A stretch of 64,000 nucleotides of DNA from NCBI RefSeq assembly GCF_015732285.1, contig NZ_WIQU01000046.1:1-64000 (forward strand), read 5' to 3'. Under the pieces are notes generated by a model. It searched no databases. It had not been told where the DNA came from and saw nothing but the letters and a program-made list of their open reading frames with translations. This document shows positions 52,084-63,507 of the stretch, piece by piece (position 1 is the first letter of the stretch; each line of letters opens with the position of its first letter). Origin of the DNA: Pectinatus frisingensis (GTDB taxonomy: Bacteria; Bacillota; Negativicutes; Selenomonadales; Selenomonadaceae). Made by a program: the position numbers and the translations under genes.

Positions 52084-52686
52084 TTGGAAATTTTAAAGAA
52101 ACGGGGACGGCCAAGAAACAAGGAAACAGAGCAGGCGATTTTAGATGCCGGATATAAGCTGTTATTAGAAAAAGGTTTTGTTAATATAACTGTTGATAAA
52201 ATAGCTGAAAAAGCAGGTGTGAGTAAGGCTACAATATATAAATGGTGGCCCAACAAAGCTGCTGTTGTAATGGATGGTTTTTTGTCCAGGTCGATAATAA
52301 AACTACCTATGCCGAATACGGGTTCAGTTATTACAGATATTACCACTCAGGCACTTAATTTAAGCCGTTTTTTATTGAGCGATGAGGGGAAAGTACTCAA
52401 TGAACTTATTGCCGAGGGACAGTTTGATGACCAGATAGCTGAAGAGTATCGGCGGCGTTATTTTACACCACGCAGAATAAAAGCCAGGCAAATATTAGAA
52501 CGTGGTGTTAAACGAGGTGAATTATCTATTGATACGGATTTGGAATTGTGCATAGATCTGATCTTTGGACCGTTGTTTTATCGACTGCTTATAACAGGTG
52601 ATAAAATAACTGAGGCATATATAAAAAAAGTTGTTGATTATACATTTAATAAAATTCTTATTATAAAAAAACAAGAGACCGTTTAG
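52084..52686 (+). CDS. TetR/AcrR-family regulator of the MFS gene
   Basis: A 200-residue regulator. The RGRPRNKETEQAILDAGYKLL lead, VDKIAEKAGVSKATIYKWW helix-turn-helix and a TetR C-terminal domain with LCIDLIFGPLFYRLLI are typical (TetR_C_33-like in appearance). The start is a TTG at 52084 after AGGGGGAA. Divergent from the exporter gene, it likely represses both genes from the shared operator. Its last codons overlap the terminator stem. Confidence 0.88.
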   Translation: MEILKKRGRPRNKETEQAILDAGYKLLLEKGFVNITVDKIAEKAGVSKATIYKWWPNKAAVVMDGFLSRSIIKLPMPNTGSVITDITTQALNLSRFLLSDEGKVLNELIAEGQFDDQIAEEYRRRYFTPRRIKARQILERGVKRGELSIDTDLELCIDLIFGPLFYRLLITGDKITEAYIKKVVDYTFNKILIIKKQETV

Positions 52687-52709
52687 TAAATGGTCCCTTG
52701 TTTTTTTAT
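52669..52709 (+). terminator. Terminator of the TetR gene
   Basis: AAACAAGAGACC (52669-52680) pairs with GGTCCCTTGTTT (52692-52703) with one mismatch, followed by a T-run. The left arm lies within the final codons of the gene. Confidence 0.88.
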
Positions 52710-52754
52710 ATATCATCATTTAAGTGAAATAAATTCTGGTATATTTGTAATTTT

Positions 52755-52766
52755 TACCGATCGGTA
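52755..52766 (+). promoter_or_regulatory. Candidate activator-binding site (UAS)
   Basis: TACCGATCGGTA is a perfect 12-bp palindrome about 113 bp upstream of the -24 element. That distance is typical of enhancers of sigma-54 activators, so it is a candidate site for the LevR-like protein. A partial repeat (ACGGTA) follows directly. Confidence 0.45.
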
Positions 52767-52878
52767 CGGTATAGATTATAAAAGTTTTGTAAAGTAAAAT
52801 GAAATTTATGTAATTACAAAAAAATCTTAAAATTTACAACTAAGTAATTAATATGGGTGCAAGGCAAAATTTTTGTAG

Positions 52879-52895
52879 TTGGCACGTGATTTGCT
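52879..52895 (+). promoter_or_regulatory. Sigma-54 (-24/-12) promoter
   Basis: TTGGCAC (52879-52885), five bases, TTGCT (52891-52895) match the sigma-54 consensus TGGCAC-N5-TTGCW exactly. It lies 45 bases before the PTS IIB gene. The cluster encodes its own AAA+ sigma-54 activator, which supports the call. Confidence 0.88.
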
Positions 52896-52940
52896 CTTTA
52901 TAATATCAGATTCACAAAATAAAAGAGGGGATGATTCAAA

Positions 52941-53255
52941 ATGGGAAAAAAAGTAAAAATTCTTTGTTGTTGTGGTGCAGGAATTTGTACATCTAATTAT
53001 TTAAGGGAGGAAATAGAAGATCGCTTAAAAGAAGAAGGCCTTAGTAAGGATGTAGTGGTTAATTTATGCCGAGTTACAGATGTGGAAGAAACTATTACCG
53101 GCGGAAATATTGATTTACTGGTTACAACTGTTGAAATGAAGAATGATTATCCGGTTCCTATGATTAGGGCGCTGGGAATTATGCTGGACGAAGCTGCGGC
53201 TAAGAAAGCCTTGGATGAAATAATGGATAATGTGCGTAAGATAATGGCACAATAA
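52941..53255 (+). CDS. PTS galactitol-type IIB component
   Basis: A 104-residue phosphocarrier. ILCCCGAGICTSN near the N terminus contains the phospho-cysteine (Cys11, before GAG). It relays phosphate from IIA to the sugar entering through IIC. Fold and size match GatB/SgcB-like proteins. AGAGGGGATG lies upstream. First gene of the sigma-54 operon. Confidence 0.9.
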   Translation: MGKKVKILCCCGAGICTSNYLREEIEDRLKEEGLSKDVVVNLCRVTDVEETITGGNIDLLVTTVEMKNDYPVPMIRALGIMLDEAAAKKALDEIMDNVRKIMAQ

Positions 53256-53288
53256 ATTAAAAAATAAGGCAGATAGAGGTGATTAAAC

Positions 53289-54563
53289 ATGGAATTTGTA
53301 GACAGCATTACTAAAGCATTATCAACGTTTTTTGGATTTGATTCATCGGTAACAATAGTAGGTATTATACTCATTGTTTCATTGTTGGTGCGTGTGGAAT
53401 TTAAAAAAGCCATTTTAGGAGCCTTAAAGGTATCTATTGGATTGACAGGATTATTTTTGGTCGTAAATCTGATTCAGACAGCTATGGTACAGCCAATTCT
53501 AAATATTATTTCCTTATATGGAATTAATAAAAGCGTCGTAGATATCGGCTGGGGATGTTTGGGATATGCTTTTGGCAACACTTACGGATACTTTGGGGTT
53601 TTTGTTTTTTTGATATTAAATGTTTTACTTGTTTCAATTCGTTTTACCCAGACTTTATATGTGGATGTTTTTAATACATGGCGGGCAATGCTGCTTGCTG
53701 GTCTGGTAGGAGTTGTCAGCGGTAGTTTTTGGATAGCGACATTAGCGGTTATTATCTTTTTAATAATTGATGTTAAGGCGGCAGATATTGCTGCACCATA
53801 TATCGAAAAAATCAATAACTTTCCTCCTGGTGGTTCTTGGCCGCACGGTACGCATTTTTCGTTTCAGGCATGTATTGCTATTCCCATTGAATACGTGTTA
53901 AAGAGAATTCCGGTAATCAAGGATGCAGCTTTCAATGCGGAAACGATACAGGAAAAGTTTGGCGTCCTTGGTGAAACAACCGTCATGGGAGCGGTACTGG
54001 GGATAATAATCGGAGCTTTTAGTCAAATAGGTGTTATGCCGTCGTTGTTATTAGGAGTAAAAATGGCGGCTGCATTCTTACTTTTACCTCGTATGGCTTC
54101 TATTCTTGTAGAAGGTTGGTTTCCAATTATAAAAGCGGCACGTAAAATTTTAGTAGGGAAAATGCATAGAGATGATGTCAGAATCGCGCTTGACTGTTCC
54201 ACGGTTATAGGACATTCTGCCGTAGTGCCGACAACATTAATTATGTATCCGCTGGCTTTGCTCATTTCTGTTTTGCTGCCTGGAAATCAAATGATTGCAT
54301 CAGTTAGTCTTATTATTGTCTTGTGGGAAAGTGCAGCTGTAAATGCGATTACTGAGGGCAATATTCTACACAATATTATTATTTTGTCAATAATAATATC
54401 ATTATTCTGCTGGGGTGCAACCATAATGGCCGGACCGATGACACAACTGGCGGGAAGTTTGGGATATGATGTTTCAAAAGGAGCCTTGTCAGCATGGGAT
54501 GCCACAGGCACACCGGCTTTGGTCATAGTGTATAAGTTATTTTCATGGGCATTTGGTTTTTAA
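53289..54563 (+). CDS. PTS galactitol-type IIC component
   Basis: A 424-residue membrane permease with about ten to eleven helices, resembling GatC/SgcC. ILGALKVSIGLTGLFLVVNL, FNTWRAMLLAGLVGVV and WPHGTHFSFQACIAIP are characteristic of the family. The substrate cannot be read from the sequence; galactitol, other polyols and sugar acids are possible within this family. AGAGGTGA precedes the ATG. Confidence 0.9.
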   Translation: MEFVDSITKALSTFFGFDSSVTIVGIILIVSLLVRVEFKKAILGALKVSIGLTGLFLVVNLIQTAMVQPILNIISLYGINKSVVDIGWGCLGYAFGNTYGYFGVFVFLILNVLLVSIRFTQTLYVDVFNTWRAMLLAGLVGVVSGSFWIATLAVIIFLIIDVKAADIAAPYIEKINNFPPGGSWPHGTHFSFQACIAIPIEYVLKRIPVIKDAAFNAETIQEKFGVLGETTVMGAVLGIIIGAFSQIGVMPSLLLGVKMAAAFLLLPRMASILVEGWFPIIKAARKILVGKMHRDDVRIALDCSTVIGHSAVVPTTLIMYPLALLISVLLPGNQMIASVSLIIVLWESAAVNAITEGNILHNIIILSIIISLFCWGATIMAGPMTQLAGSLGYDVSKGALSAWDATGTPALVIVYKLFSWAFGF

Positions 54564-54583
54564 TCGTTTAAGGGGATGAGAAT

Positions 54584-55063
54584 ATGAGTAGTGCAAGTGA
54601 AATGGAAGATGTATTTTATGATGCAGCAATATTGAATTCAGTAAAAACAAAAGAAGATGTCATAACTTTTTTGTCGGATTATTTATTTGATAAAGGCTAT
54701 GTTAATAAAAATTATCGCAAAGCTACATTGGAACGCGAAATTAATTATCCGACCGGGCTTGCAACTAAACCGACAGGTATTGCAGTACCACATTCCAATC
54801 CGGAAAATGTATTAAAAGAGGCTATTATAGCAGCTGTAATTCCTGAGACAGTAAAATTTGCGGAAATGGGTAATAATAAGTCTGTCATAGATGTTGGAAT
54901 AGTGTTTTTATTGGCATTAAAAGGCGAAAATAATCATCTTAATTATTTGAAAAATATTGTTAATTACTTTAAACAACAGAAGAATGTTATCAGTTTTCAT
55001 GCCAGCAGATCCAAATCGCAAATAAAAACAGTGCTGGTGAAAGATATATTAAAAATAGTTTAG
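54584..55063 (+). CDS. PTS IIA component (fructose/galactitol type)
   Basis: A 159-residue EIIA domain of the Fru/Mtl/Ntr/Gat fold. GIAVPHSNPENV contains the phospho-accepting His70, and VIDVGIVFLLALKGENNHLNYL follows. It receives phosphate from HPr and passes it to IIB. AAGGGGATG lies upstream. The separate A, B and C genes match GatABC organisation, although here the order is B, C, A. Confidence 0.9.
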   Translation: MSSASEMEDVFYDAAILNSVKTKEDVITFLSDYLFDKGYVNKNYRKATLEREINYPTGLATKPTGIAVPHSNPENVLKEAIIAAVIPETVKFAEMGNNKSVIDVGIVFLLALKGENNHLNYLKNIVNYFKQQKNVISFHASRSKSQIKTVLVKDILKIV

Positions 55064-55129
55064 TCTTATCGGAAAAATAAATGAAGTGACAACTGTCGTC
55101 TACTTTTTAATTTGGAAGGAGTAAATCAG

Positions 55130-56161
55130 ATGAAAATTATTGGAATAGGAGATTTACTTATACCTTCTCAATATATAATGGAAGGTTTTAATGTTTTCAA
55201 ACAGGCAGGTGCGGAATTGGCAGCTATCGACTGGTATTTAAAAAATCAGGAAGAATTACAAAATATTAACTTACAGATAGAAAAGTATGGTAGTGAGTCA
55301 TATGCACTGCCCGATGATTTAATTCAGCAAATTAAAGATGCCGACATTATTATTACGCAGTTTTGTCCGATAAATAAACGTGTAATATCCGCCTGTACAC
55401 ATCTTAAAGCAATAGGTGTTTTGCGCGGGGGGTACGAAAATATAAATTTAGAATGGGCAAATAAAAATAATATTCTGGTTTATAATACCCCGGGAAGAAA
55501 TTCTTCAGCAGTAGCTGATTTTACAGTTGGAATGCTTATTGCCGAATGCCGGAATATAGCTAAAAGTCATTTGAATCTGAAAAACGGAGACTGGATACGG
55601 GAGTATACCAATAAAAAATACGTGCCGGATCTACCGGGTAAGACAGCGGGTATTATCGGGCTTGGACAGATAGGCAGGAAAGTTGCAAAACGTTTACATG
55701 GCTTTGACATGAAAATATTAGGCTATGATCCTTTTGCTGATAATATTCCTGCCTATATCAAAATCACTGACTTGAAAAATTTAGTACAAGAATCAGATTT
55801 TTTACTTTTACACAGTCGTTTGTCGGCGCAGACACACCACTTGATAGATTCTGAAATGTTAGGATTAATGAAATCCACGGCATATTTGATAAATACCGCC
55901 CGTTCAGGACTAATTGATGAAGATGCACTGTATGTGGCATTAAAAGATAGAAAAATTGCCGGAGCGGCGCTTGATGTATTTAATGTCGAGCCACTGCCGG
56001 CAGGATGTGCATTAATTGATTTACCAAATGTAACGATAACACCGCATTTGGCCGGAAGCACGACAGATGCATTTTTCCAGTCACCGCATTTGTTGGCTGA
56101 AGAGATGCTGCCTTTTCTATCAGGCAATATTGCATCTGATTGTATCGTAAATAATAAATGA
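55130..56161 (+). CDS. D-2-hydroxyacid dehydrogenase family protein, copy 1
   Basis: A 343-residue NAD-dependent dehydrogenase of the SerA/PdxB superfamily. Catalytic residues are visible: Arg in LRGGYEN-type GVLRGGYENI, Glu in VFNVEPLP and His in TPHLAGST. The nucleotide loop is GIIGLGQIGRKVAKRL. It would interconvert a 2-hydroxy and a 2-oxo acid. No ACT domain is present, unlike SerA. The ATG at 55130 follows GGAAGGAG. It shares many motifs with a second dehydrogenase two genes downstream; both lie in a PTS operon that lacks a polyol dehydrogenase. Confidence 0.9.
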   Translation: MKIIGIGDLLIPSQYIMEGFNVFKQAGAELAAIDWYLKNQEELQNINLQIEKYGSESYALPDDLIQQIKDADIIITQFCPINKRVISACTHLKAIGVLRGGYENINLEWANKNNILVYNTPGRNSSAVADFTVGMLIAECRNIAKSHLNLKNGDWIREYTNKKYVPDLPGKTAGIIGLGQIGRKVAKRLHGFDMKILGYDPFADNIPAYIKITDLKNLVQESDFLLLHSRLSAQTHHLIDSEMLGLMKSTAYLINTARSGLIDEDALYVALKDRKIAGAALDVFNVEPLPAGCALIDLPNVTITPHLAGSTTDAFFQSPHLLAEEMLPFLSGNIASDCIVNNK

Positions 56162-56178
56162 ATAGTGGAGGGATATTG

Positions 56179-57063
56179 ATGTCATTAGTAAGTTTGAAGG
56201 AAGTACTTAATGATGCACGTAAAAATAAGTACGCTGTGGGAGCGTTTGATGTAAGCAATATTGAGATGGCAATTGCTGTGGTGGAAGTAGCGGAAGAAAA
56301 AAAGTCACCAGTTATCTTAATGGGTTTATGCCTTGATTTGCAAGGAGACAGACTGGATTACTGGTTGTATAGTCTTAGAAAAATAGCACAGAAAGCATCT
56401 GTTCCGGTATGTATTCATCTTGACCATGCTATTGATTTGGAATTTATAAAAAAATGTGTGAATACCGGTTTTTCATCTGTAATGATTGACGGTTCAATGC
56501 TGCCATTACAGGAAAATATTGATAAAACAAAATATGTAGTTGATTATGCGCATAAATTTAATGTCAGTGTAGAGGCTGAATTAGGACATGTGGGTGATGG
56601 TATAGTAGGAAATAGTGAAATAGGAGCACCGGCTAAAAATACATTTGACAATCCGGAGGATTCTCTAACACGTCCTGATGAACTTAAACATTTTATTGAT
56701 GCTACAGGAGTTGACTGTGTAGCAGTTGCTGTAGGTACTGCGCATGGAATATATGTGTATAAACCCAAAATACACTTTGACAGATTAAAAATGTTGAATG
56801 AAATTTCTACAGTTCCAATGGTAATGCATGGCGGTTCGGGAACACCTGATGAATTAATAAAGAAATCGGTGCAGAATGGCATATGCAAATTAAACATATT
56901 TTCCGAGATGCTCACAGCTTTTTATGGAACATTAAAAGAAGAATTAAATACAGCTAAACATTTGGCTATCTGGCCGCATAATGCCAATGAGAAACCGATT
57001 GCTGCATTGAAAAAAGTAGTTGCAGCTAAAATAGATTTAGTAGGATCAGCAGATAAAGCTTGA
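56179..57063 (+). CDS. Class II sugar-bisphosphate aldolase (GatY/KbaY/FbaA-like)
   Basis: A 294-residue metal-dependent aldolase. AVGAFDVSNIEMAIAVVEVA near the start, VCIHLDHAID (catalytic Asp and zinc His), VEAELGHVGD (metal ligands), VAVAVGTAHGIY and VMHGGSGTPDE (phosphate loop) are all present. It would split a ketose-phosphate or related phosphorylated keto compound, releasing DHAP or a similar triose. The ATG at 56179 has GGAGGG upstream. It is flanked by two D-2-hydroxyacid dehydrogenase genes. Confidence 0.92.
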   Translation: MSLVSLKEVLNDARKNKYAVGAFDVSNIEMAIAVVEVAEEKKSPVILMGLCLDLQGDRLDYWLYSLRKIAQKASVPVCIHLDHAIDLEFIKKCVNTGFSSVMIDGSMLPLQENIDKTKYVVDYAHKFNVSVEAELGHVGDGIVGNSEIGAPAKNTFDNPEDSLTRPDELKHFIDATGVDCVAVAVGTAHGIYVYKPKIHFDRLKMLNEISTVPMVMHGGSGTPDELIKKSVQNGICKLNIFSEMLTAFYGTLKEELNTAKHLAIWPHNANEKPIAALKKVVAAKIDLVGSADKA

Positions 57064-57098
57064 CTTTTAAAGATGAAGATGTATGGGGAGAGATAAAA

Positions 57099-58139
57099 AT
57101 GACTAAAACAAAAATACTTTGTGTTGCAGATGGTGGTATTACTAGAGATCTGATGCAGCAAATGCATGAGCTGGAACAATATAATGCAGATGTGACAATC
57201 ATTGAGGACAAAGAAATGTATGCAATGGGTCCGATAACGGACCGGATGCTTTTGATAGAACACAATGGTGTGGATGCCGCACCAACTTGCAGGGAACTGC
57301 TTGAAAATTGTGCGGATAAAGATATTTTAGTAGTTCATGTGGCAAGTATTAATAAAGAAATAATAAATGCCTGTAAAAATCTAAAAGTCGCAGCTGTATT
57401 GCGGGGCGGTTATGAAAATGCTGATGTGGCTGCTTTAACAGAAAAAAATATTAAATTAATAAACGCACCGTGGCGAAGCGCCAATGCAGTGGCTGATTTT
57501 ACGGTGGGGATGATGATAGCTGAAAATAAAAACATTGCCCGCAGCCATAAACTTATTTTTGAAGGTAAATGGTGTAAAAAGTATGTAAATCAGGAATATA
57601 TACATGATATGCGTGCAATGACAGCCGGGATCATTGGTTTCGGTTATATCGGCCAGAGAGTGGCTGAACGCTTAAAGGGATTCGGTACAAAAGTAGTCGT
57701 TTATGATCCGTATATTGATAAAAGCAAGTTTGCCAATAGCGGTGTAGAATTTATGGAATTGGATCAATTGCTGGAAACAGCAGATTTTGTCAGTGTGCAT
57801 TTACGTCTGTCAGAAAAAACACATCATTTTATTGGAGCAGAAGAATTACAAAAGATGAAGAAAACAGCATATCTTATCAACACAGCACGTTCCGGGTTGG
57901 TAGATACGGCGGCGTTAGTGACATCTCTGCGTAACAAGGACATTGGGGGAGCTGCAATTGATGTTTATGATGAAGAACCCCTGCCTAAAAATCATCCGTA
58001 TTTGCAGTTAAATAATATTACCTTGACATCTCATTTAGCGGGAACTTCATGTGATACTATGAAAAATTCTGTGGAAATCGGGGTGGAGGATCTTAAACGT
58101 TATTTAACAGGAAAATCAATGTTGAACGTACGCAACTAA
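57099..58139 (+). CDS. D-2-hydroxyacid dehydrogenase family protein, copy 2
   Basis: A 346-residue paralogue of the dehydrogenase at 55130. It has AVLRGGYENA (Arg), YDEEPLP (Glu) and TSHLAGTS (His), plus GIIGFGYIGQRVAERL. Shared segments such as ADFTVGM-IAE and YLINTARSGL-D show common ancestry, but the N-terminal substrate domains differ clearly, so the substrates or direction probably differ too. GGGGAG precedes the ATG at 57099. A terminator lies about 95 bases after the stop. Confidence 0.9.
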   Translation: MTKTKILCVADGGITRDLMQQMHELEQYNADVTIIEDKEMYAMGPITDRMLLIEHNGVDAAPTCRELLENCADKDILVVHVASINKEIINACKNLKVAAVLRGGYENADVAALTEKNIKLINAPWRSANAVADFTVGMMIAENKNIARSHKLIFEGKWCKKYVNQEYIHDMRAMTAGIIGFGYIGQRVAERLKGFGTKVVVYDPYIDKSKFANSGVEFMELDQLLETADFVSVHLRLSEKTHHFIGAEELQKMKKTAYLINTARSGLVDTAALVTSLRNKDIGGAAIDVYDEEPLPKNHPYLQLNNITLTSHLAGTSCDTMKNSVEIGVEDLKRYLTGKSMLNVRN

Positions 58140-58232
58140 TCGATGCTGATATCAGATCATAAAAAAATTGGTTAATAAAATTATTTTTACTTATTGATAG
58201 TGGCAGCGAATGATTATTTAATTGTGGGAATG

Positions 58233-58264
58233 GCAAGGTTTAATTTATTAATACCTTGCTTTTT
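58233..58264 (+). terminator. Terminator of the PTS operon
   Basis: GCAAGGT (58233-58239) and ACCTTGC (58253-58259), with more AT pairing inside (TTAAT/ATTAA), followed by five T. It separates the structural genes from the activator gene, which therefore has its own promoter. Confidence 0.85.
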
Positions 58265-58399
58265 CTGCTAATATAAGAAATTAATATTTTAGAATATGCT
58301 TTAGTTTTGACTTAGTTTAGTTTAAAATAATAGCAATAATATCTTGCCGGAGCATAAATTGGAAAATAGAATGATAATTAGTAAAAAGGAGCATATAGA

Positions 58400-61273
58400 G
58401 TGACTGTAACGTTAAAGGATAAAATTACAGCGTTAATTAATGCTGAAGATAAAAAAAATCCTCTTACAGATGAACAATTAGCAGTGCAATTATCTATTTT
58501 ACGTGAAACTGTCACCGGGGTAAGAAAAGAACTTAAAATACCGAATTCACGTACAAGAAAAAGAGAAATAGTAAAGACTGTTGTAAGTAAAATAATGGCA
58601 GAAAAACCAGATATAAGTATTGGCGGACTTGTAAATAAACTGGAAGAATCAGGGATATGTATATCAAGAACATATGTAACGGAATTAATAAATGAATTAA
58701 AAGATATGCAAAAGGAAAATACAGAAAAATCGTCAGAGAAACAAAAAAATAATATATTTTCAAAATTAATCGGTTATGATGGAAGTTTGTTAAAAAACAT
58801 AAAGCAGGGACAGGCAGCTATTTTGTATCCTCCTTTGGGACTGCCTACGCTTATTGTAGGCGAAAGCGGGACTGGAAAAACATTATTTGCAGAATATATG
58901 TATAAATATGCAGTTGATCAAAAAGTGTTAAAAGAAAATGCACCGTTTATGTTATTTAATTGTGCTGATTATAGTGATAATCCGCAGTTATTGGTTTCTA
59001 TATTGTATGGGTATAAAAAAGGGGCATTTACAGGTGCTGATAAGGATACGGAAGGTATAGTGGAAAAAGCCGATAATGGTATGCTTTTTTTGGATGAAAT
59101 TCATCGTTTACCACCAAAAGGACAGGAAATGTTGTTTTCAATTTTGGACAGAGGAAAATTCAGACGCATGGGTGAAGTGGAAGTGGAAAGGACCACTCAT
59201 ATATATTTTATCGGAGCGACTACAGAGAATATAGAATCATCACTGCTGCTGACTTTTAGAAGAAGAATACCGATGATTATTGAACTGCCTACGTTGGAAG
59301 ACAGATCGCTGCATGAGAAAATAAAGTTGATTCATGGTTTTTTTCAACAAGAAGCTAACAGGATAAATTATAAAATATTAGTTAAGGCAAAAATAATGGA
59401 GGCTTTTGTTTTTAAGAAATACTCAGGAAATATTGGACAGTTGAAAAGTGAAATTCAAGTAACTTGTGCTAACGCCTACGTGGATAAAATCAATAATAAA
59501 AGAGAAGAAATATATATAGGATTTAATGAAGTGTTATATCAAAAATTTTTTTATGATATAAATACGCAGAAAAATACGATAAGATTCAATGATGCCTTAT
59601 TTATTCCTAATGATGACGAAATTGAGGATTCAATGCTCACAGTTAAAAACCAGTATTCATTGCCACGTGACATATATGAAACCATTGAGAATAAATATTA
59701 TGAATTAAAGAAAAACAACGTAAATGTTGAAGAAACAGAAAAAATAATATGGGATTTTTTGCTGGGGTACTTTAATAAAATAAGTTTGGATTCACAAGAT
59801 AAAAATTTATCATCATTAGACGATCTAAAATATCTTTTTGATTCCTCAATAATACAATTATTGAAAGATTTTAAAGATTTGGTTAAAAATATTTATCCAG
59901 ATAGGAAAATAAATGAAAAGGTATTGATTTATCTGGCGATACATTTAGAAGAAGCGGTAAAAAGAATAAAATTCAATCAGGAAATAATGAACCCCAATCT
60001 TATTTATATCAAGGAAAATTTTACAGATGAATTTGATTTAGCTGGTAAATTGGCGCAGAAATTGGCACAAAGTAAGTCGATTGAGGTGCCCGAAGGCGAA
60101 ACCGGTTTTATAGCAATATATATACACGAATTGTTAAAGCTGCCGGATAAAAAAAATCGTATAGCTATAATTACTATTTCTCATGGTAAAGTGGCCTCGG
60201 AAATGATAAATGTTGTAAAAAAAATGCTGAATGTTGATTTCCCCATAGCAATAGATATGCCACTGGATGTTAATCCAATAAAAATATTTGAACAGGTGGT
60301 AGAGGTGGCAAAATCACTAAATGCAGACGAAGGGATACTTTTCTTCGTTGACATGGGATCATTGGTTACCATTGGGGAAATCGTTCACAGCAGAACCGGG
60401 ATACAAACAAGAACTATTGACAGGGTAGACCTTATTTCTGTCATAGAAGCAGTGCGTAAAGCTGATGCCTCGGAAGAATCACTTGATAATATATATTATG
60501 ATATTATTAATTCAAAGCATGACTATTCATTGGTGACAGTAGAAAATTCCAATAAACCACCGGCGTTTGTCAGTATGTGTCTTACAGGCCATGGGGTAGC
60601 ATTGACAATAAAAGATACCTTAGCGCGCTACTATGCTAAGGTAAAAATCATTCCGATGAGTATAATGGATGATAATGTAAAAGAAAAAATTGATAATATA
60701 AAACATCAGTATAATATAATAGCTGTTGTCGGAACAATTAATCCTAAGATAAAGGGATTGAATTTCATACCTTATGACAATGACTTTGGTAAAGATAAAC
60801 GAATGTTTTTGGACTATTTATTACAGGAAAATAATGGCGGTTTGATGCATACACTGATAAAAAAAGAATTTATATTGTTGGAAGTAGAATGTACGTCGAA
60901 AAAAGAAATAATTAACATGTTGGGAAAGCTTCTATTTAATAAGGGGTTTGTGAAATTTGAATATATAGACTCCGTGTCAGGCCGGGAAAAGATGAGCAGC
61001 ACCTATTTTAGAAATGCAGTCGCATTGCCGCATGGATTACCTTCATTTGTAAGTAAATCAATTATCGTTTTTGCAAGATTGAAAAAGAAAGTAGTCTGGG
61101 ATAAAAATGGAAATGAAGCTCAATTGATATGTTTACCAGCAATAAAAAGTGAGGATGTAGATGCTGTAAATAAGCTGTTTAGGATTCTCAAACAAAAAGA
61201 AAAGGTCGATAAATTGCTGCATGTGCAGCAACAACAGGAATTTTTGGAAGAATTGAGCAATATATACGAATAA
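58400..61273 (+). CDS. LevR-like sigma-54 activator with PTS regulatory domains
   Basis: A 957-residue regulator. An N-terminal helix-turn-helix region (about 1-100) is followed by an AAA+ domain with Walker A GESGTGKT (154-161), GAFTGA (208-213, the sigma-54 contact) and LFLDEIH (229-235). Then come a PRD-like region (about 430-580, AIHLEEAVKR, YIHELLK), an EIIA-Man-like domain with ITISHGK (His595), an EIIB-Gat-like domain with MCLTGHG (Cys727) and a C-terminal EIIA-Fru/Ntr-like domain with ALPHGLP (His878). LevR itself ends in a second PRD, so the last domain is a variant. The GTG start follows AAGGAG. Phosphorylation state of the PTS would tune its activity at the upstream sigma-54 promoter. 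Confidence 0.92.
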   Translation: MTVTLKDKITALINAEDKKNPLTDEQLAVQLSILRETVTGVRKELKIPNSRTRKREIVKTVVSKIMAEKPDISIGGLVNKLEESGICISRTYVTELINELKDMQKENTEKSSEKQKNNIFSKLIGYDGSLLKNIKQGQAAILYPPLGLPTLIVGESGTGKTLFAEYMYKYAVDQKVLKENAPFMLFNCADYSDNPQLLVSILYGYKKGAFTGADKDTEGIVEKADNGMLFLDEIHRLPPKGQEMLFSILDRGKFRRMGEVEVERTTHIYFIGATTENIESSLLLTFRRRIPMIIELPTLEDRSLHEKIKLIHGFFQQEANRINYKILVKAKIMEAFVFKKYSGNIGQLKSEIQVTCANAYVDKINNKREEIYIGFNEVLYQKFFYDINTQKNTIRFNDALFIPNDDEIEDSMLTVKNQYSLPRDIYETIENKYYELKKNNVNVEETEKIIWDFLLGYFNKISLDSQDKNLSSLDDLKYLFDSSIIQLLKDFKDLVKNIYPDRKINEKVLIYLAIHLEEAVKRIKFNQEIMNPNLIYIKENFTDEFDLAGKLAQKLAQSKSIEVPEGETGFIAIYIHELLKLPDKKNRIAIITISHGKVASEMINVVKKMLNVDFPIAIDMPLDVNPIKIFEQVVEVAKSLNADEGILFFVDMGSLVTIGEIVHSRTGIQTRTIDRVDLISVIEAVRKADASEESLDNIYYDIINSKHDYSLVTVENSNKPPAFVSMCLTGHGVALTIKDTLARYYAKVKIIPMSIMDDNVKEKIDNIKHQYNIIAVVGTINPKIKGLNFIPYDNDFGKDKRMFLDYLLQENNGGLMHTLIKKEFILLEVECTSKKEIINMLGKLLFNKGFVKFEYIDSVSGREKMSSTYFRNAVALPHGLPSFVSKSIIVFARLKKKVVWDKNGNEAQLICLPAIKSEDVDAVNKLFRILKQKEKVDKLLHVQQQQEFLEELSNIYE

Positions 61274-61299
61274 TTTGTGAAATGTCAGGGAGAATGCAT

Positions 61300-62100
61300 A
61301 TGGCAGTAAAATTAATTGTAAGTGATTTGGATGGGACTCTTTTAAACAGCAGGAAAACTGTAAGTGACGCAACGGCGCAAATATTGCAAAAAGCTTCACA
61401 AATGGGAATATATACCTCGATAGCAACGGGAAGAATGCATACCTGTGCGGCTTTTTTCGGTAAAAAAATCGACAGCAAGGTGCCAGTGATATCCTGTAAT
61501 GGCGGTATGATGCGTACTGTTGATACAAATGAATTGATTTATGAAAAATACGTAGATGACTGTGTCGGAGAAGAAATCTTAGCGTTCCTTTTTGCAAATA
61601 AAGTATACTGCAGCTGGTATATAGGAATGAAAAATATTGCCCCGTATTTTTCTTGGTCAATGTTTCCCGATTATACAACTGTAGTTCCGTTTAATTTTAT
61701 TGAAACAGGAAATGACTATAAAAAATACGCCCATAAAATAACACAGTTTATTTTGCGTGATAATGAAAAACTACCTCTAAGCATATTGGATTCATTAAAT
61801 GAAAAATTTGGTAAATATGTGTCTTTTCAGCAAAATACTCAATATACGATAGATATTACGCCGTTAGCCACCACTAAAGCTACTGGACTGCAATCATTAG
61901 CCGGATATCTCGGCGTTAAACCGGCAGAGGTAATGGTGCTGGGGGATGGCAGTAATGATTTGGAAATGTTTGAATATGCAGGTATCGCTGTCGCCATGGG
62001 AAATGCTGACAACAGTGTCAAGGAAAGGGCAACTTTTATAACAGCAGATTGTGATAATAACGGTGTAGCCGAGGCAATAGAAAAAGTATTGGAAATTTAA
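61300..62100 (+). CDS. Cof-type HAD phosphatase
   Basis: A 266-residue haloacid-dehalogenase phosphatase (class IIB). Motif I is SDLDGTLLNS, motif II SIATGR, motif III a Lys in TTKATGLQSL and motif IV GDGSNDLEM. Substrates of this class are sugar phosphates or similar. The ATG at 61300 follows AGGGAGA. It starts 27 bases after the activator gene and may remove or detoxify phosphorylated intermediates of the pathway; that role is inferred from position only. Confidence 0.9.
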   Translation: MAVKLIVSDLDGTLLNSRKTVSDATAQILQKASQMGIYTSIATGRMHTCAAFFGKKIDSKVPVISCNGGMMRTVDTNELIYEKYVDDCVGEEILAFLFANKVYCSWYIGMKNIAPYFSWSMFPDYTTVVPFNFIETGNDYKKYAHKITQFILRDNEKLPLSILDSLNEKFGKYVSFQQNTQYTIDITPLATTKATGLQSLAGYLGVKPAEVMVLGDGSNDLEMFEYAGIAVAMGNADNSVKERATFITADCDNNGVAEAIEKVLEI

Positions 62101-62133
62101 GTCTTTATTTGCAGTCTTTTTTCGGCAGTCAAT

Positions 62134-62198
62134 ATATTCATATTACGGCAGGGATAAATAAATATGAAAGTAAAATATCGCTGCCGGATGCGGAATAT
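62134..62198. repeat. Imperfect inverted repeat after the HAD gene
   Basis: ATATTC ... CGGCAG (62134-62151) and CTGCCG ... GAATAT (62181-62198) face each other; 13 of 18 positions pair. The loop is AT-rich. There is no T-tract, so its role is unclear. Confidence 0.4.
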
Positions 62199-62242
62199 TG
62201 ATATTGTAAGAGTACAGGTCTTTAATTTGTTTTTTGCAAAAA

Positions 62243-62381
62243 AATAAGGGGCTGTCGCATGAACAACATTGACCTCATAAGGATGCAATCCACCGCCGCT
62301 GTGTGGTTCCCCGCCCTTTTAAGGGCGGACGAAAGGAACAGATGCATATTATGAATGAAAATGGCTGCGTGTGACAACCTC
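62243..62381 (+). repeat. Structured dispersed repeat, copy B
   Basis: About 139 bases, opposite in orientation to copy A. It begins AATAAGGGGCTGTCGCATGA and ends GCGTGTGACAACCTC; 13 of 14 terminal positions pair (with wobble). Inner pairs are CATAA/TTATG and ATGCA/TGCAT, at the same positions as the CATA/TATG and GCAA/TTGC pairs of copy A. The middle hairpin is CCGCCCTTTTAAGGGCGG. It lies between the convergent HAD and trpS genes. Confidence 0.65.
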
Positions 62382-62421
62382 TTCAACATGAGCAAAAATT
62401 TATGTTAATAAATAATATGAT

Positions 62422-63507
62422 TTATCTTTGAAAGCGTTTTACTTGTTCTTTTATAAGTTCATCATCATCAAAATAATTTATTTTCATGGCGCTTTTCACT
62501 GCTTTCAAAGTCTGGGCAGCAACTGCGCGTGCTTTTTGGCTGCCATCTTGCAGCATTTTATATATGGCAGGAATATTTTTCTCAAGTTCAGTACGGCGTT
62601 TCTTTATCGGCTCAAGATATTCCATTAATATGGCATAAAGGAATTTTTTTACCTTAACATCACCCAGACCACCGCGCTGGTAATGAGTCTTTAATTCGTC
62701 CAGATTGTCATAATCTGGCAGATAGCGTTTGAAATGTTCTGCAGTGCAGAAAGCGTCAAGATAGGTAAAAACAGTGTTGCCGGTGATTTTTCCCGGATCA
62801 CTGAGACGTATATGGTCAGGATCGGTATACATATTCATTACCTTTTTTTTGATTTCATCGGCGGTTTCTGATAAATAAATGCAGTTGCCGATAGATTTGC
62901 TCATTTTTGCTTTCCCATCAATACCGGGCAGACGCTGGCATACCTCATTGCTGGGTAAAAGTATATCCGGTTCAGTTAAAGCTTTACCATAAGTGCTATT
63001 GAATTTGCGAACTATTTCTCTGGTTTGCTCAAGCATCGGCACTTGGTCTTCGCCTCCCGGGACGGTTGTAGCCTGGAAAGCTGTTATATCTGCAGCCTGA
63101 CTGATGGGATAGGTAAAAAATCCGACAGGGATGCTGGCTTCGAAATTTCTTGACTGAATTTCTGCTTTCACTGTAGGATTACGCTGCAAGCGTGAAACTG
63201 TTACCAAATTCATGTAATAAGCACATAATTCCGGTAGTTGAGGAATTTGTGATTGTATAAAAATTGTCGATTTTTCCGGGTCAAGACCGCAAGCCAGATA
63301 ATCAAGTGCAACTTCAATTATATTTTGTCGTATTTTTTCCGGATTATCAGCATTATCAGTGAGAGCCTGGGCATCAGCAATCATAATGAATATTTTATCG
63401 TATGTACCTGAATTTTGTAATTTTACACGTTCCCGCAAAGAACCGACATAATGGCCTATATGCAATCTTCCGGTAGGACGATCTCCCGTTAAGATAATTT
63501 TTGCCAC
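62422..63507 (-). CDS. trpS: Tryptophanyl-tRNA synthetase
   Basis: A 361-residue class I synthetase that charges tRNA-Trp. DRPTGRLHIGHYVGSL has the HIGH motif and KAKMSKSIGN the KMSKS motif. VPGGEDQVPMLEQTREI and the C-terminal helical region are typical. TGGAGG precedes the ATG. It is convergent with the PTS/HAD cluster and divergent from the thioesterase gene. Confidence 0.97.
   Translation of the reverse strand: MAKIILTGDRPTGRLHIGHYVGSLRERVKLQNSGTYDKIFIMIADAQALTDNADNPEKIRQNIIEVALDYLACGLDPEKSTIFIQSQIPQLPELCAYYMNLVTVSRLQRNPTVKAEIQSRNFEASIPVGFFTYPISQAADITAFQATTVPGGEDQVPMLEQTREIVRKFNSTYGKALTEPDILLPSNEVCQRLPGIDGKAKMSKSIGNCIYLSETADEIKKKVMNMYTDPDHIRLSDPGKITGNTVFTYLDAFCTAEHFKRYLPDYDNLDELKTHYQRGGLGDVKVKKFLYAILMEYLEPIKKRRTELEKNIPAIYKMLQDGSQKARAVAAQTLKAVKSAMKINYFDDDELIKEQVKRFQR

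What the first reader, a model, noticed from the sequence alone, without database searches (positions are those of the whole stretch)
52755..62100. A sigma-54-driven galactitol-type PTS operon with two 2-hydroxyacid dehydrogenases instead of a polyol dehydrogenase
Seen: IIB-IIC-IIA, then D-2-hydroxyacid dehydrogenase, class II aldolase, a second D-2-hydroxyacid dehydrogenase, a LevR-like activator and a HAD phosphatase, behind an exact -24/-12 promoter. Known: galactitol operons (gatYZABCD) oxidise the phosphorylated polyol with a zinc-type dehydrogenase (GatD). Inference: the substrate carries or gains a 2-hydroxyacid group, for example an aldonate or tetronate phosphorylated on import. PdxB, which oxidises 4-phosphoerythronate, belongs to the same dehydrogenase superfamily, so such a step is chemically reasonable. 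I do not recognise this enzyme combination from a described pathway.
Basis: partly seen in the sequence, partly recalled or inferred. Interest (0 to 1): 0.78.

Follow-up and report, generated by a model that had tools for sequence, protein, structure and literature searches.

The report
Unassigned PTS operon, probably for sugar acids
An anaerobic bacterium related to beer spoilers carries a regulated gene set that probably imports an acidic sugar, splits it in two and reduces the acidic half; we found no published description, and the substrate is still a guess to be tested.

Summary
The gene set is real. A perfect -24/-12 sigma-54 promoter (52880-52895) precedes IIB-IIC-IIA, a D-2-hydroxyacid dehydrogenase (DH1), a class II aldolase (ALD) and a second dehydrogenase (DH2). 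A LevR/DagR-like activator and a HAD phosphatase follow, but behind a terminator present in the four Pectinatus loci. In 22 loci with IIC at least 72% identical, dehydrogenase plus aldolase adjoin in 20 (2 are cut by contig ends) and the promoter stands in 21. Two dehydrogenases are not the rule: 6 loci have two, 14 show one. DH1 and DH2 are separate clades. The aldolases of all 20 loci lack the DPR arginine that 31 of 31 fructose-bisphosphate aldolases keep; this argues against a bisphosphate substrate but is not specific, since 12 of 19 lower-scoring paralogues lack it too. Relatives use an FGGY kinase instead of the PTS, and in 5 of 6 more distant sets a gluconate-family permease. Best model: a keto sugar acid is phosphorylated on import, ALD yields DHAP plus an acidic aldehyde, and the dehydrogenase reduces the latter. 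Substrate unknown. New variant of a known kind.

The parts
52785..52818 (+). candidate activator site TTTTGTAAA-N15-TGTAATTACA upstream of the promoter
   Evidence: similar words in the four Pectinatus upstream regions, compared by eye; inference only
52880..52895 (+). sigma-54 (-24/-12) promoter TGGCACGTGATTTGCT
   Evidence: sole match in the window, 0.06 expected; TGGCAY-N5-TTGC before IIB in 21 of 22 loci
52941..53255 (+). PTS EIIB, Gat type, with CCCGAGICTS cysteine loop
   Evidence: PF02302 6.5e-7; best NCBIfam model galactitol IIB, 27.9 bits against a cut-off of 95
53289..54563 (+). PTS EIIC, Gat family, own subfamily
   Evidence: PF03611 4.8e-41; TIGR00827 236 bits, cut-off 542; orthologues 72-93%, next best 34%
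54584..55063 (+). PTS EIIA (PTS_EIIA_2)
   Evidence: PF00359 3.3e-24
55130..56161 (+). D-2-hydroxyacid dehydrogenase DH1; missing from the locus of one Pectinatus genome (G004)
   Evidence: PF02826 1.2e-57; own clade 100/100
56179..57063 (+). class II (zinc) DHAP-type aldolase lacking the DPR arginine
   Evidence: PF01116 1.4e-85; AF2 model pLDDT 87, Foldseek best 3q94 and 1gvf
57096..58139 (+). D-2-hydroxyacid dehydrogenase DH2, partner of the aldolase
   Evidence: PF02826 1.5e-59; own clade 100/100; an aldolase gene in the same cluster in 13 of 13 genomes
58232..58264 (+). likely intrinsic terminator after DH2
   Evidence: -15.3 kcal/mol, z -4.07, then five T; counterparts in three other Pectinatus; not listed by the scan
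58400..61273 (+). LevR/DagR-like sigma-54 activator: RpoN-box-like N-terminus, AAA+ (GAFTGA), PRD, EIIA-man, EIIA_2
   Evidence: DagR model 448.6 bits, cut-off 1400
61282..62100 (+). Cof-type HAD-IIB phosphatase; among the loci compared, directly after REG only in P. cerevisiiphilus and P. haikarae besides the window
   Evidence: TIGR00099 186.4 bits, cut-off 137

Best explanation
A sigma-54-controlled operon for an acidic sugar. Steps: (1, inferred) the Gat-type PTS imports a keto sugar acid, for example a 5-ketohexonate (5-ketogluconate, fructuronate, tagaturonate) or a 4-ketopentonate, and phosphorylates the terminal carbon next to the ketone. (2, sequence-supported as to DHAP-type cleavage of a non-bisphosphate; the acid tail is inferred) ALD cleaves this ketose-1-phosphate-like compound to DHAP and a small aldehyde acid (tartronate semialdehyde/hydroxypyruvate, or glyoxylate). 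(3, inferred) the 2-hydroxyacid dehydrogenase partnered with ALD (DH2 here, DHb in the one-dehydrogenase loci) reduces it to glycerate or glycolate, recycling NADH in a fermenter. DH1 is accessory, perhaps a 2-ketoaldonate reductase widening the substrate range. The activator senses PTS flux through its PRD and EIIA domains and opens the -24/-12 promoter (domain roles recalled). In carbon terms it is a carboxylate counterpart of the sulfofructose-1-phosphate aldolase route.
For: Dehydrogenase plus aldolase adjoin this IIC in 20 of 22 loci, the other 2 truncated. One dehydrogenase suffices in 12 type-B loci and in G004. ALD keeps HxDH, zinc His, HGGSG and N-x-x-S/T, but the DPR motif, kept in 31 of 31 above-cut-off FBAs plus GatY and KbaY, is absent in 20 of 20 type A/B locus aldolases and in the 6 complete type-C ones; it is also absent in YdjI, which uses DHAP plus a uronate-type aldehyde (passage), and in SqiA 8q58 (DPEEY; name from PDB titles). 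In 7 type-C genomes an FGGY kinase stands in place of the PTS around DH1-ALD-DH2, so phosphorylation before cleavage is needed. A related dehydrogenase-aldolase-FGGY set has a GntP permease in 5 of 6 loci. Both dehydrogenases keep the R-E-H triad and share an extra Arg in the substrate loop. The genome has RpoN and a glycerate kinase.
Against: No substrate or enzyme data exist. Lack of the DPR motif is common: 12 of 19 sub-cut-off class II aldolases from this and related genomes lack it, as do 8 of 8 ALDb-like ones outside this system, so it excludes little beyond bisphosphate aldolases; that the Arg binds the second phosphate is recalled, and my search for it in papers gave no confirmation. 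The acid evidence comes from relatives 39-45% identical, not from this locus. Type-B dehydrogenase and aldolase are only 33-43% identical to the window's, so pooling A and B is an inference. Of 20 places of the E-type aldolase in 380 genomes only 6 have the dehydrogenase-FGGY partners. Of 8 ALDb-like places fetched from other phylum members none has a 2-hydroxyacid dehydrogenase; 5 have a zinc dehydrogenase. Why some loci have two dehydrogenases is not explained. One same-genus genome (G001) lacks the locus. RpoN and glycerate kinase are common genes. Confidence was lowered from 0.42 after the control.
Confidence: 0.38

Rival explanations
1. Polyol route: the PTS makes a polyol-1-phosphate, the dehydrogenase (in place of GatD) oxidises C2 beside the phosphomethyl group to a ketose-1-phosphate, and ALD splits that to DHAP plus a neutral aldehyde.
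For: Gat-family PTS are classically polyol systems (recalled; D-arabitol in B. methanolicus, passages of PMC6685057). PTS + one dehydrogenase + aldolase is enough. The extra loop Arg could hold a phosphate. ALD features fit any ketose-1-phosphate, and ALDb-like aldolases elsewhere lie beside zinc dehydrogenases (5 of 8 places).
Against: Known D-2-hydroxyacid dehydrogenases act on carboxylates or oxoanions (recalled) and the triad is intact. GntP permeases beside related dehydrogenase-aldolase pairs do not fit a neutral polyol (specificity recalled).
Confidence: 0.28
2. First-reader type route: an aldonate is phosphorylated on import, DH oxidises C2 to a 2-keto-omega-phosphoaldonate, ALD cleaves it to hydroxypyruvate plus glyceraldehyde 3-phosphate, and the other DH reduces hydroxypyruvate.
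For: Gives both 2-hydroxyacid dehydrogenases canonical jobs and is redox neutral; relatives lie among gluconate-type genes recognised by eye.
Against: ALD lacks the Arg thought to hold an aldehyde-side phosphate and keeps the ketone-side phosphate motifs, the reverse of what this needs; 12 type-B loci and G004 have one dehydrogenase.
Confidence: 0.13
3. The dehydrogenases are side enzymes, for example detoxifying glyoxylate or hydroxypyruvate, and are not steps of the pathway; PTS plus ALD handle an imported ketose through its 1-phosphate.
For: Family best hits are broad (PGDH, glyoxylate and hydroxypyruvate reductases); DH1 is absent from the G004 locus.
Against: A dehydrogenase adjoins the aldolase set in 20 of 20 assessable loci, and DH2 has an aldolase gene in the same cluster in 13 of 13 genomes across PTS and kinase versions.
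Confidence: 0.12

Closest known systems
Galactitol operon gatYZABCD (E. coli)
   Same: Gat-family IIA/IIB/IIC and a GatY-family class II aldolase
   Different: No GatD zinc dehydrogenase, no GatZ, aldolase lacks the DPR Arg, two 2-hydroxyacid dehydrogenases, sigma-54 promoter
D-arabitol PTS operon atlABCD (B. methanolicus; passages of PMC6685057)
   Same: PTS IIA/IIB/IIC operon with a second co-transcribed putative dehydrogenase
   Different: Arabitol phosphate dehydrogenase reported; no 2-hydroxyacid dehydrogenase in the passages seen; a BglG-type antiterminator gene is listed
E. coli YdjI aldolase cluster and sulfofructose phosphate aldolase SqiA
   Same: class II aldolases for acid-tailed ketose phosphates without the DPR Arg (SFP being the 1-phosphate is recalled)
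   Different: YdjI has a kinase (YdjH), a zinc-binding dehydrogenase and YdjG beside it, and no PTS gene in the stretch seen; SqiA pathway partners recalled only
Class I aldolase-GlpP-FGGY-SDR-2-hydroxyacid dehydrogenase-IIC operon of Klebsiella and E. coli SE11
   Same: Related dehydrogenase and a Gat-family IIC; no gene names in either annotation
   Different: IIC without adjoining IIA/IIB, kinase and SDR instead of a full PTS, class I (DeoC/LacD family) aldolase
DagR/LevR sigma-54 activators with PRD and PTS domains
   Same: AAA+, PRD and EIIA domains beside a PTS operon
   Different: DagR cut-off not reached; the DagR match covers residues 97-800, the C-terminal EIIA_2 domain lies outside it

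Membership tests
Galactitol (gat) operon | Gat-type IIC at the NCBIfam galactitol cut-off | tested here: not met
   TIGR00827 236 bits against 542.2; Pfam EIIC-GAT family membership is met
Galactitol (gat) operon | zinc-type GatD dehydrogenase | tested here: not met
   none among the eight genes; the only dehydrogenases are 2-Hacid_dh
Galactitol (gat) operon | ketose-bisphosphate aldolase with the DPR Arg of GatY/KbaY | tested here: not met
   His at that column in the window; Arg in GatY, KbaY and 31 of 31 above-cut-off FBAs
D-2-hydroxyacid dehydrogenases | 2-Hacid_dh_C domain and R-E-H catalytic triad | tested here: met
   Pfam E about 1e-57 or better; triad positions (recalled) occupied in both
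PdxB 4-phosphoerythronate dehydrogenase | NCBIfam PdxB equivalog cut-off | tested here: not met
   112.1 and 112.2 bits against 434
PdxB 4-phosphoerythronate dehydrogenase | oxidation of 4-phosphoerythronate | not testable with these tools
   needs an enzyme assay
Class II DHAP aldolases | catalytic HxDH, zinc His, DHAP-phosphate motifs | tested here: met
   alignment of 19 aldolases; fold match to 1gvf, TM 0.87
Sigma-54-dependent PTS operons with a LevR-type activator | -24/-12 promoter plus AAA+/PRD activator, with RpoN in the genome | tested here: met
DagR (D-glucosaminate regulator, name recalled) | DagR equivalog cut-off | tested here: not met
   448.6 bits against 1400
Sulfofructose phosphate aldolase SqiA | cleavage of sulfofructose phosphate | not testable with these tools
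   only the shared lack of the DPR Arg was seen

The most novel reading that the evidence does not exclude
A further way to ferment hexuronate- or ketogluconate-like acids that bypasses Entner-Doudoroff chemistry: PTS phosphorylation of the keto acid followed by glycolysis-style aldol cleavage to DHAP plus tartronate semialdehyde (or glyoxylate), balanced by a dedicated 2-hydroxyacid dehydrogenase, with PTS and permease-plus-FGGY-kinase versions in Negativicutes and Clostridia and related gene sets in enterobacteria and haloarchaea.
Probability: 0.3. Interest if true: 0.72.

Novelty: new variant of a known kind. Interest (0 to 1): 0.5.

Why it matters
If right, it adds sugar acids to what Gat-family PTS can carry, gives functions to two clades of unassigned 2-hydroxyacid dehydrogenases and to an aldolase subgroup that automatic models place nearest fructose- or tagatose-bisphosphate aldolases, and makes the annotation of such operons in anaerobes testable with a handful of assays. 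Even if the substrate turns out to be a polyol, a 2-hydroxyacid dehydrogenase acting as the polyol-phosphate dehydrogenase would be unexpected.

Tried and rejected
PdxB-like membership rejected by score and tree. Recent duplication of DH1/DH2 rejected: separate 100/100 clades. One transcript through the HAD gene doubted because of the terminator. The DPR loss as a mark of acid substrates: rejected as a specific mark after a wider control (kept in 2 of 7 own-genome and 5 of 12 related sub-cut-off aldolases, 0 of 8 ALDb-like and 0 of 18 E-type aldolases). Rfam scan of 52600-62450: one sub-threshold match inside DH1, taken as chance. Structure models: DH2 pLDDT 77.5 (TM 0.54 to its best hit, rmsd about 12), ALD pLDDT 87; Foldseek gives family-level hits only. 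Plasmid search with the type-B dehydrogenase: no match. Phylum search with the type-B aldolase: 8 of 398 genomes, 9 places; 8 stretches fetched (not G653): 5 have a zinc dehydrogenase (3 of them mannose-type PTS genes, by eye), 1 an FGGY kinase, none a 2-hydroxyacid dehydrogenase. No exact inverted repeat of 7 or more bases in the 300 bases before IIB of the window. Pectinatus beer paper PMC11510336 (outline and a term search): no galactitol, PTS, hydroxyacid, xylitol, gluconate or erythritol. Sigma-54 regulon paper PMC6615313 (term search only): no hydroxyacid, galactitol, aldolase, Pelosinus or Pectinatus. Gluconobacter 2-ketogluconate reductase paper PMC11837542 (two passages): nothing of use. 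Paper listings (titles and abstract starts only) without a described match: no paper; 20 of 216 listed; 15 of 31 listed.
Full report
What is there. Eight plus-strand genes run from 52941 to 62100: IIB, IIC, IIA, DH1, ALD, DH2, a LevR/DagR-like activator (REG) and a Cof-type HAD phosphatase. The PTS looks complete (cysteine loop in IIB, PHS in IIA, read). The TetR gene at 52084-52686 has a relative next to what look like efflux genes in P. haikarae (by eye) and is not counted as part.

Promoter and transcripts. TGGCACGTGATTTGCT at 52880 is the only such site in the window. TGGCAY-N5-TTGC stands before IIB in 21 of 22 loci examined: 17 of 21, three more (L049, L052, L044) once the search ran past called starts that are probably too long, and L042. 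The background of the slightly looser pattern used is 0.015 per 600 bases. The one miss, Clostridium algoriphilum (L058), also shows no activator gene in the stretch held. The genome has an RpoN. Between DH2 and REG lies a 260-base gap with a strong hairpin and T-run, with counterparts in the three other Pectinatus loci; REG-HAD are probably a separate unit. In type-B loci the gap before REG is mostly short (4-91 bases in L048, L053, L056, L057 and L059; coordinates), so the split is not general.

Conservation. One pattern-based scan of the species collection with the IIC alignment gave 18 loci. With the window, G004, G033 and G028 that makes 22 distinct loci; the G003, G002 and G025 stretches duplicate three of the 18. 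Of five genomes of the genus four have the locus and G001 does not. Dehydrogenase plus aldolase adjoin IIC in 20; L061 and L062 end at the contig edge. Six loci have two dehydrogenases (window, two Pectinatus, G028, C. algoriphilum, and C. algifaecis with a DH3-like one). Two show DH2 only: G004, where IIA and ALD are 90 bases apart, and the Massilibacillus MAG, cut after IIA. Twelve (Pelosinus, Propionispora, Propionispira, Lucifera, Anaerovirgula, Alkalibacter, a Clostridiales MAG and G033) have one distinct dehydrogenase (DHb) and an aldolase about 40% identical to the window's. REG adjoins in 18 (cut in L051, two frames in L055), is absent in L058, and 3 loci are truncated. So the minimal set is PTS, one dehydrogenase, one aldolase, one activator.

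Swapped front ends. Among 380 genomes of the class, 13 have a DH2 at least 71% identical; in 13 of 13 an aldolase gene of this kind lies in the same cluster (frame incomplete in G018) and DH1 in 11. Six have the PTS. Seven have instead a more distant Gat IIC without adjoining IIA/IIB, an SDR, an FGGY kinase and, except G018, a GlpP-type antiterminator (G332 is cut inside IIC). G028 has both front ends. A constant DH1-ALD-DH2 module with exchangeable PTS or kinase suggests that the substrate must be phosphorylated before the aldolase.

Pointers to an acid, and their limits. A search for the E-type aldolase gave 20 places in 17 of 380 genomes, all of which I compared. Six (G309, G020, G116, G106, G110, G051) carry a dehydrogenase of the same wider clade and an FGGY kinase; five of these have a GntP-family permease beside them and G051 none within 6 kb (Pfam on two of the permeases; NCBIfam on one; two by similarity). 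Eight lie beside BKACE and a DUF1537-like acid-sugar kinase without a 2-hydroxyacid dehydrogenase (one BKACE and one of these kinases checked by Pfam). Four lie beside an MFS transporter, three of them with a more distant dehydrogenase. Two stand alone. Another sister group of the dehydrogenase (L100-L109) lies with genes recognised by eye as GntP, kinases, 6-phosphogluconate dehydrogenase or Entner-Doudoroff enzymes. The acid context is thus frequent but indirect.

Aldolase. The catalytic, zinc and DHAP-phosphate motifs are kept. The DPR arginine is absent in 20 of 20 type A/B locus aldolases and in the 6 complete ones of 7 type-C loci (10 A/B and 3 C, the rest; in L054 an Arg falls in the column but not in a DPR motif). 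Arg is present in 31 of 31 aldolases above the TIGR01859 cut-off (31 of the 43 above-cut-off places listed), in GatY and in KbaY. YdjI has a deletion there and SqiA 8q58 has DPEEY (alignment printed). [quoted passage not shown] But the control shows that 12 of 19 sub-cut-off aldolases of this and related genomes, 8 of 8 ALDb-like and 18 of 18 E-type ones also lack the motif. So the result says 'probably not a bisphosphate aldolase' and no more; that the Arg binds the distal phosphate is recalled.

Dehydrogenases. DH1, DH2 and DHb are three separate clades, each 100/100 (four long branches make the deep order unsure). The 35 rows of this wider group keep the Arg-Glu-His triad and have an Arg just before the carboxylate-binding glycine loop (R103 in DH2), where GhrB, SerA and PdxB have other residues (triad positions recalled). 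PDB and fold searches give PGDH and glyoxylate/hydroxypyruvate reductases as nearest, which cannot name a substrate.

Interpretation. A scheme that satisfies all of this is PTS (or kinase) phosphorylation of a keto sugar acid next to its ketone, cleavage to DHAP plus an aldehyde acid, and reduction of the latter by DH2 or DHb. DH1, which tracks with SDR and FGGY genes in type C and is missing in G004, may handle 2-keto groups. Steps 1 and 3 are inferred; of step 2 the DHAP-type cleavage is supported by sequence. The polyol alternative remains open.

Literature. In the paper listings searched I saw no described pathway with this gene set: no paper with two of FGGY, 2-hydroxyacid dehydrogenase, glycerol-3-phosphate responsive antiterminator; lists cut at 20 of 216 and 15 of 31. 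Most subscription papers are outside that library, so absence from print is not shown.

Noticed in passing
window 62225-62410: Interspersed repeat of about 140-186 bases downstream of the HAD gene; 39 further matches in the own genome are listed (70-90% identical, some short; 40 of 98 candidates scored). No inverted repeat of 12 or more bases and no Rfam match up to E 0.1 there.
   Followed up: partly
L045 3664-10045 (own genome C28): Second, kinase-type operon: class I aldolase, GlpP-like antiterminator, FGGY kinase, SDR, 2-hydroxyacid dehydrogenase, Gat IIC without adjoining IIA/IIB; related gene set in Klebsiella (L128) and, at 82% DNA identity to Klebsiella, in 3 of 5426 E. coli genomes.
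   Followed up: partly
L095 14288-14623 and similar places in L096, L097, L098: An HPr paralogue (NCBIfam in L095, by eye in the others) stands just before a Gat IIC that has no adjoining IIA/IIB, in a cluster with an LsrK/XylB-like FGGY kinase.
   Followed up: no
window 58400-58564: The activator's N-terminus matches the sigma-54 DNA-binding domain model above the Pfam cut-off; a second such weak match lies in the own genome at C52.
   Followed up: no
own genome, 11 places: Eleven Gat-family IIC homologues, the window's included, in one 2.9 Mb genome.
   Followed up: no
L129 4274-7816: Haloarchaeal plasmid (Halalkalicoccus) with class II aldolase, FGGY kinase and a related 2-hydroxyacid dehydrogenase in a row, a GlpR gene divergent before them.
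   Followed up: partly
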